From: a virus
DNA: 56,853 bases
Strand: one strand, 5' to 3'
Virus record (IMG/VR): IMGVR_UViG_3300034524_000079
Location: 1 to 56,853 of that record
In this document: piece after piece, positions 14,078-16,425 of the stretch
Layout: every line of letters starts with the position of its first letter
How positions within the stretch are numbered: the stretch's first letter is position 1
Translations under genes and position numbers: made by a program
The notes under the pieces: model-generated
Database searches by the model: none
The model's input: only the letters and a program-made list of their open reading frames with translations
What the model was told of the DNA's origin: nothing

Positions 14078-14869
14078 TTGAGCAAAACACAAAACACAAG
14101 CCTGCGCAAATCAAAGATGGGGTGCCGCCTGCCCCATGAAAGCCATGACGTGGGAGACGGGTATACTGCACCAAGCCCGGTGAAAAAATATCGACTTAGC
14201 CCGGAAGAGTTAGCTAAGTATGGCCCGATAAAGAAAGTTGAGCACCGCCGACAATTACTGACACGTGATGTACTGGTTGAAAAATTAAAAACACTGACCG
14301 TGGGTCAGGTGGCCCAGCGTCATAACATACCTGCGGTAATGGTTTTTAAGCTGGTTGAAAAGTATGGTTTGGAGCTGGACAAGAAAAACCGGTTGAAGGA
14401 GGGTGAAAGCATGGAAAATGTTGATAAATCTTTACGCAAAAATGAATTCGAGCCTTATGAGCCCAAGAAGACCCGCCTGGAAATCGCCCGGGAAAAGATT
14501 GACTTGGAGAAATATAAGAACCTAAAAGCGCAAGGGAAAACCGACAAGGATATGTATGAGGAGCTAGACATACCGGTGGATGTGTTTTACACACTCAAAA
14601 AAGAGTGGGGGATTGCTCAGACAATAGCCAAAAGTAAGCCTGATCCCAAAAACGATAAGGCTGCCGGTAAAAAGATGACGATCTCTAAGGCTATGGAGTT
14701 GCGAGAGGAATTGTGCGCTGATAGGTCTTGCATTGCGGATATTATGGATCCGGGAAAATTGGAAATATCACCAAAAGTGCGGGAACTGTTAAGTAATCAT
14801 TACGAAAAGTGCGGGGAGAGGTTGGAGCGGATCGACAAAGTTTTCGACTCCACGGAAATTGAGGTGTGA
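14078..14869 (+). CDS. Helix-turn-helix-like early protein, 263 aa
   Basis: TTG 14078 follows GGGAGGCGG. Two separate helix-turn-helix-like segments are seen: LTVGQVAQRHNIPAVMVFKLVEKYG (residues 72-96) and KTDKDMYEELDIPVDVFYTLKKEWG (about 153-177). The rest is charged. It could be a DNA-binding regulator or origin/packaging factor; no family recognised. It precedes the Tas-like gene by one small gene. Confidence 0.6.
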   Translation: MSKTQNTSLRKSKMGCRLPHESHDVGDGYTAPSPVKKYRLSPEELAKYGPIKKVEHRRQLLTRDVLVEKLKTLTVGQVAQRHNIPAVMVFKLVEKYGLELDKKNRLKEGESMENVDKSLRKNEFEPYEPKKTRLEIAREKIDLEKYKNLKAQGKTDKDMYEELDIPVDVFYTLKKEWGIAQTIAKSKPDPKNDKAAGKKMTISKAMELREELCADRSCIADIMDPGKLEISPKVRELLSNHYEKCGERLERIDKVFDSTEIEV

Positions 14870-14871
14870 GT

Positions 14872-15138
14872 ATGAACCTTAGCTTTAATTTTAACCCGGT
14901 GGATACCGTAGCGATTTACGCTGATGATCCGGAATACCAGATCGGCAAAAAGGCAGTTAAAGGCGATTATCGGCTTACTGAGCGGCAGGAGCAGGTAAAG
15001 AATATGTTTTTACACCTGGTTAGCGTGGTGCGGAGAAAAGAATTGCCGGTGAACATTGATCGGCTTCTGGACGCCACCAGGGATTATGTTCAAGAACGGA
15101 GGCTGGAGGAATATGAGTGGACTCGGAGGGTTGGCTAA
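14872..15138 (+). CDS. Hypothetical protein, 88 aa
   Basis: ATG 14872 is preferred over GTG 14866 because GAGGTG (14861-14866) then sits 5 bases upstream. It is a mixed hydrophilic protein with a C-terminal helix and no recognised motif. It overlaps the next gene (start 15113) by 26 bp, so it is the immediate operon partner of the Tas-like protein. Confidence 0.6.
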   Translation: MNLSFNFNPVDTVAIYADDPEYQIGKKAVKGDYRLTERQEQVKNMFLHLVSVVRRKELPVNIDRLLDATRDYVQERRLEEYEWTRRVG

Positions 15139-15916
15139 GGTTTACCAGGATATCCAGGGGCTCAGAGTAGCCCTTGGAAACAAAACCTGGAGCGCGGAAA
15201 ATGCGGACGGCCGGGCAGTGCCGGCGATATATGAAACAATGATTGCCCAATTAAAAGAAATGGAAGCCGGCCTTGTTAAAGAGGCAAAACAGTACCTTAA
15301 AGAGCACCCAGCATGGATGGGATTTGGTAAAGACGTAAAGGGACTGGGCCCAACGCTGGGCGCTCAACTGATCGGGTACATCGAAGATATCGGGCGCTTT
15401 GATACCGTGAGTAAGCTCTGGAAATACTGCGGCCTGGCCTGTGTGGACGGAAAGGCCGACAGGATGAGGAAGGGGCAGAAGGCGAGCTATAATCCGAAGA
15501 TCAAGAGCCTGCTTTACAACATTGGGTGTAGCTTTATCAAGACCAAGAGTCCGTACCGGCGTATCTATGACGATAAAAAGCAATACTACCGGCAAGTAAA
15601 GCAGGACCCGCAGATCATGGCAGTAACCGGTGACAATGCCGGGATAATAAACAATATTCGACAGGATAAAAAAGAGTGGCCCAGGTATCTCGCGACCGCC
15701 ATCAAGGAAGCCAAAAAGCAAGGAAAACAAAAACCCTGGACGGACAATCACGTTCACATGGCAGCCCTCAGGAAGATGGAAAAGATATTCCTTGCCCACC
15801 TCTGGGAGCAGTGGAGAATTGCCGAGGGTTTGCCAACCAGGCGGGAGTACGTGTTTGATTGCCTCGGACATACAAGTAGGTACGAAGCCAAAGATTTTAA
15901 AAAGCAAGCCAGTTAG
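15113..15916 (+). CDS. Nop/IS110-C-terminal-like protein; candidate TasA of a TIGR-Tas system
   Basis: ATG 15113 follows GGAGG. The 267-residue product has a coiled-coil helix pair (about residues 38-65) and then a Nop-like/IS110 C-terminal core: KDVKGLGPTLGAQLIGYIEDI, SKLWKYCGLA and NPKIKSLLYNIGCSF. Its C-terminal helix region reads HMAALRKMEKIFLAHLWEQW. The IS110 DEDD catalytic half is absent, as are HNH and RuvC motifs, so it cannot be a transposase or nuclease alone. Its stop codon lies in the first degenerate repeat of the adjacent array. This gene-array pair fits TasA-type RNA-guided DNA binding (established for the Tas family; applied here by inference). Confidence 0.75.
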   Translation: MSGLGGLAKVYQDIQGLRVALGNKTWSAENADGRAVPAIYETMIAQLKEMEAGLVKEAKQYLKEHPAWMGFGKDVKGLGPTLGAQLIGYIEDIGRFDTVSKLWKYCGLACVDGKADRMRKGQKASYNPKIKSLLYNIGCSFIKTKSPYRRIYDDKKQYYRQVKQDPQIMAVTGDNAGIINNIRQDKKEWPRYLATAIKEAKKQGKQKPWTDNHVHMAALRKMEKIFLAHLWEQWRIAEGLPTRREYVFDCLGHTSRYEAKDFKKQAS

Positions 15917-16342
15917 CCTTTAAAGATATGAGGACTTCTGTAAAATGCGAGCCTTACACGCCCTGAGGCCCACCTATCTTTGCGAGCCTTCGAAAAAATG
16001 AAACCTGAACAGTATTGCGAGCTGGAATTCAGATGATACCCTTCGGACCATGCGAGCTTATGGATATTTGAGGACTATATTAGTGTGCGAGCTGTGGATA
16101 CTTGTAAACTAAGTCTCTAATGCGAGCCGGAAATAAAACTTGAAATCGATACTACTTGCGAGCCCGGGTAAAAATAAGTATTGGATGCTTGTGCGAGCTT
16201 GGCAATATTTTTGATACAATAACAAACTGCGAGCTACCGTATTAGTGAGAACTTGGGAAGGCTGCGAGCTGCTGTGATTTCGAGATCTTATCATGAATGC
16301 GAGCCTAACTTCAATCGATGTGAATGTAAGAAATGTGCGAGA
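15911..16342 (+). repeat. TIGR-like array: 11 exact TGCGAGC repeats plus degenerate ends, 35-36 bp period
   Basis: TGCGAGC starts at 15946, 15981, 16016, 16051, 16086, 16121, 16157, 16192, 16228, 16263 and 16298. A degenerate AGTTAGC (15911) opens the array and TGCGAGA (16336) closes it. Steps are 35, 35, 35, 35, 35, 35, 36, 35, 36, 35, 35 and 38. About 18 bp after each repeat start lies a second loose box: TGAGGAC, TGAGGCC, TGAAACC, TGATACC, TGAGGAC, TGTAAAC, TGAAATC, TAAGTAT, TGATACA, TGAGAAC, CGAGATC. Each unit thus holds two unique spacers of about 9-11 nt between 'edge' and 'loop' repeats, as in TIGR arrays that give 36-nt guide RNAs. Confidence 0.85.
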
Positions 16343-16425
16343 CCCGGCCACACAAACCACGAAAGGAGGATGCTCCGACGGAAGACGTATAAACGCTGTT
16401 CATGAGCTGGCCGGGTTTTATTTCT
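16342..16425 (+). terminator. Structured 3' end of the array transcript
   Basis: ACCCGGCCA (16342-16350) pairs perfectly with TGGCCGGGT (16408-16416), followed by TTTATTTCT. The 57-nt inside can form GGAG-GATG-CTCC and CGT-ATAA-ACG hairpins, so this is a multibranched RNA with a terminator-like tail. It begins inside the last degenerate repeat, so it likely ends or stabilises the guide-array transcript. It resembles no riboswitch I know. Confidence 0.55.

What the first reader, a model, noticed from the sequence alone, without database searches (positions are those of the whole stretch)
15911..15952. First array unit overlaps the stop codon of the Tas-like gene
The TAG stop (15914-15916) lies in a degenerate repeat AGTTAGC at 15911, exactly 35 bp before the first perfect repeat, with a normal centre box (TGAGGAC) between. 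Gene and array therefore share one transcript and the first guide would be cut from the mRNA end, which may couple guide processing to Tas expression.
Basis: seen in the sequence. Interest (0 to 1): 0.7.

Follow-up and report, generated by a model that had tools for sequence, protein, structure and literature searches.

The report
Guide-RNA array starting inside a stop codon
In this phage the first unit of a TIGR guide-RNA array begins inside the stop codon of the TasA gene next to it, so gene and guides almost certainly share one messenger; many related viruses do the same, also behind genes that have nothing to do with TasA, so it looks like a general habit of these arrays more than a TasA control switch.

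Summary
The locus is a TIGR-TasA system: a 267-aa solo Nop-domain protein (fold match to TasR 9mty, Z 23.8) followed by 12 dual-repeat units of mostly 35 bp and a terminator-like hairpin. AGTTAGC is the known 5'-truncated first edge repeat. Across 33 Tas clusters the first edges keep AGCCA, the last edges keep TGCG, and together they give exactly the published 36-nt guide; this puts the predicted 5' end of guide 1 here inside the stop codon (T^AG, 15914^15915).

In related viruses 63 of 104 arrays start at a same-strand stop codon (7% at random positions). Unit 1 keeps its boxes while its spacers turn over behind nearly identical gene ends, so it is a real guide unit. One shared transcript is well supported. 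A coupling peculiar to Tas is not: arrays behind non-Tas genes show the same overlap (11 of 28, against 10 of 28 behind tas), and the stop position shifts between related phages. Best reading: co-transcribed arrays packed onto the stop codon of whatever gene precedes them. Cutting out guide 1 should cost that mRNA its stop codon: untested, simple to test.

The parts
15113..15916 (+). tasA gene (267 aa, solo Nop-domain protein), stop TAG 15914-15916
   Evidence: PF02371 1.4e-8, phrog_4285 2.8e-48; profile to TasR 9mty 1.2e-78 and TasH 3.1e-39; AlphaFold pLDDT 88.6, 9mty Z 23.8
15911..15919 (+). 5'-truncated first edge (edge0) AGTTAGCCT; right half AGCCT intact, contains the stop codon
15915..15949 (+). 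predicted tigRNA 1 (35 nt), 5' end inside the stop codon (T^AG)
   Evidence: boundary TGCG^AGCCA inferred from first and last edges of 33-37 Tas clusters; not measured
15929..15937 (+). loop repeat of unit 1 (TGAGGACTT); its TGA is the next in-frame stop after TAG
15946..15952 (+). first complete edge repeat TGCGAGC
15911..16342 (+). TIGR array: unit 1 plus 11 further units, ending in the last edge TGCGAGA
16339..16424 (+). terminator-like hairpin (long GC-rich stem, large loop, T-rich 3' arm) that includes the end of the last edge
   Evidence: fold -33.1 kcal/mol, z -3.37
14866..15138 (+). small conserved ORF overlapping the tasA start; same operon
   Evidence: homologues directly upstream of tasA in L001 (1.6e-19) and L097 (6.8e-7)

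Best explanation
This is the junction of a TIGR-TasA locus. tasA and its guide array are transcribed as one RNA that ends at the hairpin after the array. Unit 1 is a real guide unit whose edge repeat is cut down to the right half (AGCCT), the only part a first unit needs, since the left half of an edge is the 3' end of the unit before it. Here that half-edge is laid over the stop codon, so the A and G of TAG are also the first two letters of guide 1, and maturation is predicted to cut between T and AG. Such overlaps are common to TIGR arrays behind any gene and reflect compact packing of arrays onto stop codons inside operons; they are not a switch specific to Tas. Shown by comparison: the layout, its register, its recurrence, the turnover of unit-1 spacers, and its independence of Tas. 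Inferred: the shared transcript in this phage, the exact cut, and the loss of the stop codon when guide 1 is excised.
For: Coordinates and chance estimate. Protein is TasA by sequence and fold. First edges keep AGCCA (positions 5-9: 33, 36, 35, 29, 27 of 37 clusters) and not TGCG (10, 13, 6, 12 of 37), while internal edges are nearly invariant at positions 1-7. Last edges keep TGCG (32, 33, 31, 31 of 33) and mostly lose the rest; AGCCA+9+9+9+TGCG = 36 nt, the published tigRNA length. 63/104 arrays start at a same-strand stop codon versus 7% at random and 11/104 on the opposite strand, with no promoter-like enrichment. Stops peak at offsets 2-3, where stop and AGCC share letters (10 of 47 in range, p 2e-4). 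Near-identical gene ends (91-97%) carry different unit-1 spacers (L015 v L073, L020 v L066, L084 v L088). The same arrangement is present in Microcystis phage Mvi-JY20. tas and non-tas genes give the same frequencies.
Against: No RNA data for this phage. A weak sigma-70-like match (9 of 12) lies within unit 1 at 15919-15946, so an internal start after unit 1 is not excluded. [quoted passage not shown] In the characterised SpTIGR array of phage CGphi29 the stop is about 30 nt upstream with a hairpin-like stretch between, so overlap is not a rule.
Confidence: 0.8

Rival explanations
1. Regulatory coupling: Tas-dependent excision of guide 1 cuts the tasA mRNA at its stop codon, leaving a non-stop message that is degraded, so Tas limits its own synthesis; conversely, terminating ribosomes shield unit 1 while Tas is being made.
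For: Predicted cut inside TAG here; in 10 of 28 dereplicated tas loci the stop lies at or beyond the predicted guide 5' end. Tas protein is needed for processing.
Against: Equally frequent behind non-tas genes (11 of 28); stop position is labile among related Tas genes (L078 -6 v L079 +18, L098 v L011, L108 v L071); most tas loci keep the stop upstream of the cut.
Confidence: 0.12
2. The array has its own promoter inside the 3' end of tasA or in unit 1, and the overlap is only spatial.
For: A 9-of-12 sigma-70-like match at 15919-15946.
Against: Promoter-like scores at array starts equal those of shuffles (mean 7.73 v 7.62); the match would start transcription after unit 1; the equivalent spot in L001 has a different sequence.
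Confidence: 0.12
3. Unit 1 is a decayed remnant, not a working guide, and the stop-codon match is leftover repeat sequence.
For: Its left half-edge is lost; L097 (58% identical Tas) has a clearly broken first unit.
Against: Only the left half is lost, in nearly all clusters alike, and the right half and loop are kept; spacers of unit 1 are replaced in close relatives while the boxes stay.
Confidence: 0.08

Closest known systems
TIGR-Tas systems, TasA type with dual-repeat array (Faure et al. 2025, PMC12045711)
   Same: Solo Nop-domain protein, alternating edge and loop repeats, short split spacers, 5'-truncated first edge, 3'-truncated last edge, terminator-like hairpin, phage genome.
   Different: Units mostly 35 rather than 36 bp (second spacer about 8 nt); the last units have degenerate loops; the first edge is laid over the tasA stop codon, which the paper's main text does not mention.
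TIGR-TasH of Salicola phage CGphi29 (SpTIGR)
   Same: Array directly downstream of the tas gene on the same strand, truncated first edge.
   Different: HNH nuclease domain; stop codon about 30 nt before the first edge with a hairpin-like stretch between.
Box C/D snoRNP Nop5 and IS110 (IS621) transposases with bridge RNA
   Same: Nop-type RNA-binding fold (8wt9 Z 15.3, 1nt2 Z 8.2).
   Different: No transposase or RuvC domain here, no bridge RNA; guides come as a tandem array.

Membership tests
TIGR-Tas (TasA, dual-repeat) | Nop-domain Tas protein | tested here: met
   Profile E 1.2e-78 to TasR 9mty, 3.1e-39 to TasH; model pLDDT 88.6; 9mty Z 23.8, rmsd 1.8, 199 residues
TIGR-Tas (TasA, dual-repeat) | No nuclease domain (TasA rather than TasR or TasH) | tested here: met
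   267 aa; model residues 1-265 align to 9mty 111-322, i.e. beyond its N-terminal RuvC part; no HNH or RuvC hit in Pfam
TIGR-Tas (TasA, dual-repeat) | Array of alternating edge and loop repeats with spacers of about 9 nt | tested here: met
   12 edge repeats from 15946 plus truncated edge0; loop boxes TGANNNCY in most units; spacers mostly 8-9 nt
TIGR-Tas (TasA, dual-repeat) | 5'-truncated first edge and 3'-truncated last edge followed by a terminator | tested here: met
   AGTTAGCCT first, TGCGAGA last, hairpin 16339-16424 with z -3.37
TIGR-Tas (TasA, dual-repeat) | Array RNA processed to guides of about 36 nt bound by Tas | not testable with these tools
   needs small-RNA sequencing; predicted length 35 nt for unit 1
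TIGR-Tas (TasA, dual-repeat) | Tandem-spacer binding of double-stranded DNA targets | not testable with these tools
   binding needs a biochemical assay; a scan for self-targets in the window found nothing beyond shuffled spacers apart from one 2-mismatch hit in 18 nt with a 2-bp gap
CRISPR array | One long repeat with single spacers, cas genes | tested here: not met
   two short alternating repeats and split spacers; the adjacent gene is TasA

The most novel reading that the evidence does not exclude
Excision of the first guide cuts within, or upstream of, the stop codon of the upstream gene, so each message can yield either protein or a complete guide set: a built-in exchange between Tas (or another gene product) and guides, with non-stop mRNA and ribosome rescue as the by-product. 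This would hold for the third or more of arrays in which the stop lies at or past the predicted guide 5' end.
Probability: 0.15. Interest if true: 0.65.

Novelty: new member of a known kind. Interest (0 to 1): 0.45.

Why it matters
The TIGR-Tas maturation pathway and the way arrays arise are stated open questions in the founding paper. The comparison gives a sequence-only prediction of the cut (TGCG^AGCCA) that matches the 36-nt guides, shows that arrays usually start on the stop codon of the gene before them, and names loci in which the cut should fall inside a stop codon, where guide production and translation of the same RNA must collide. It also warns that removing or re-terminating a tas gene in a construct can destroy guide 1.

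Tried and rejected
Homologue searches with single proteins and close alignments found only L001 in viral contigs and none in genome contigs or plasmids; the edge-repeat pattern was far more productive. Rfam: no match in the window. Spacer targets within the phage: not beyond shuffled spacers apart from one 2-mismatch hit in 18 nt with a 2-bp gap, taken as chance. Recoding of TAG: no sign; other genes use TAG, and a TGA follows in frame after four codons. A Tas-specific junction: rejected by the control with non-tas genes. An array promoter at the junction: no enrichment. An in-frame loop TGA as a planned backup stop: the loop of unit 1 is in frame in 19 of 48 loci listed, near the one third expected, so not claimed.

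Full report
Observation. The coordinates given are exact. The open reading frame from ATG 15113 ends in TAG at 15914-15916; AGTTAGC spans 15911-15917, TGAGGAC 15929-15935, and the first full TGCGAGC 15946-15952, 35 bp on. Edges follow to 16342 with spacings of 35 to 38. The conjunction of AGC[CT] with a good loop box at the right distance occurs 3 times in 112,524 other positions, so unit 1 is not a chance match.

What the locus is. The protein matches Pfam Transposase_20 and phrog_4285, TasR of PDB entry 9mty at 1.9e-27 by single sequence and 1.2e-78 by profile, TasH at 3.1e-39 and IS621 at 1.3e-7. A model with pLDDT 88.6 aligns to 9mty with Z 23.8, rmsd 1.8 over 199 residues, and to Nop5 with Z 8.2. 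It has no nuclease part. With the dual-repeat array this is a TIGR-TasA system in the sense of Faure et al. 2025 (PMC12045711). [quoted passage not shown] Its main text does not mention stop codons.

Comparison. A scan for three spaced TGCGAGC repeats found more than 119 stretches of viral contigs. Forty-eight distinct Tas-array junctions fall into 39 Tas clusters at 70% identity. In 37 of them the first edge keeps AGCCA (33, 36, 35, 29, 27 of 37) but not TGCG (10, 13, 6, 12 of 37), whereas internal edges are nearly invariant at positions 1-7. The last edge keeps TGCG and mostly loses the rest. The two truncations meet at TGCG^AGCCA, and AGCCA + 9 + 9 + 9 + TGCG is 36 nt, which agrees with the published guide length without having been fitted to it. 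In the window the TAG occupies positions 4-6 of the first edge, so the predicted cut is T^AG, 15914^15915.

Where the stop lies. In tas loci the stop may overlap the half-edge as TAG-CC or T(A/G)A-GCC, may be the TGA or TAA of unit 1's own loop repeat so that the gene codes through half-edge and spacer A (L017, L062, L079, L106, L125), or may lie a few bases upstream. The Microcystis phage Mvi-JY20 has the same TAGCCT as the window. The closest TasA, L001, has its stop 8 nt before the first-edge start; L097, 58% identical, has a broken unit 1. Related Tas genes differ in stop position (L078/L079, L098/L011, L108/L071).

Control. Arrays that follow genes other than tas show the same thing: of 28 dereplicated cases in each group, stop at or past the predicted guide start in 10 (tas) and 11 (other), and at offsets 2-3 in 5 and 5. 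Offsets 2-3, where stop and AGCC share letters, are over-used (10 of 47, p about 2e-4 against a uniform spread). Overall 63 of 104 arrays start at a same-strand stop codon, against 7% at random positions and 11 of 104 for the opposite strand, and promoter-like scores at array starts do not exceed shuffles. Arrays thus sit in operons, directly after whichever gene precedes them; in several loci the last edge is followed at once by the ribosome-binding site of the next gene.

Is unit 1 alive? In near-identical gene ends the unit-1 spacers have been replaced while half-edge and loop are kept: L015 against L073 (95% over the last 300 nt), L020 against L066, L084 against L088. That is the behaviour of a working guide unit.

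Mechanism. Shared transcript: strongly supported by layout, the terminator-like hairpin after the array only, and the published co-expression from a promoter before tasR, but not measured in this phage. Cut inside the stop codon: inferred. Consequence for translation: a message from which guide 1 has been cut has no stop codon. Whether this matters to the phage is unknown; the control with non-tas genes and the lability of the stop argue that the layout arose from packing and not from selection for control of Tas. The paper's remark that minimal arrays needed full edge repeats leaves open how the 5' end of unit 1 is formed.

Limits. Spacers show no convincing target in the phage itself.

Noticed in passing
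window 14866-15138: A small ORF overlapping the tasA start is conserved directly upstream of tasA in L001 and L097; no family match; a possible partner gene.
   Followed up: partly
window 15593-15730: The window TasA carries an insertion of about 43 residues (161-203) absent from L001, with lower model confidence (pLDDT 57-76).
   Followed up: no
window 16121-16342: Edge repeats stay perfect along the array while loop boxes decay in units 7, 8, 9, 11 and 12; the last unit is 38 nt.
   Followed up: no
window 16339-16424: The terminator-like hairpin uses the end of the last edge as part of its stem and has an unusually large loop containing AAAGGAGGATG.
   Followed up: partly
L017, L062, L079, L106, L125: The Tas stop codon is the TGA/TAA of the first loop repeat, so the Tas C-terminus is encoded by the half-edge and spacer A of guide 1.
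   Followed up: yes
L028, L038, L105: The tas reading frame appears to run through one or more array-like units.
   Followed up: no
L026, L062, L069, L077, L084, L108, L110: The last half-edge TGCG is followed within about 25 nt by the ribosome-binding site and start of the next gene: arrays in mid-operon without a terminator.
   Followed up: partly
L016, L043, L053, L055, L057, L091, L095, L112: Several viral contigs carry two or more separate arrays, some upstream of tas or with no tas gene in the fetched stretch.
   Followed up: no
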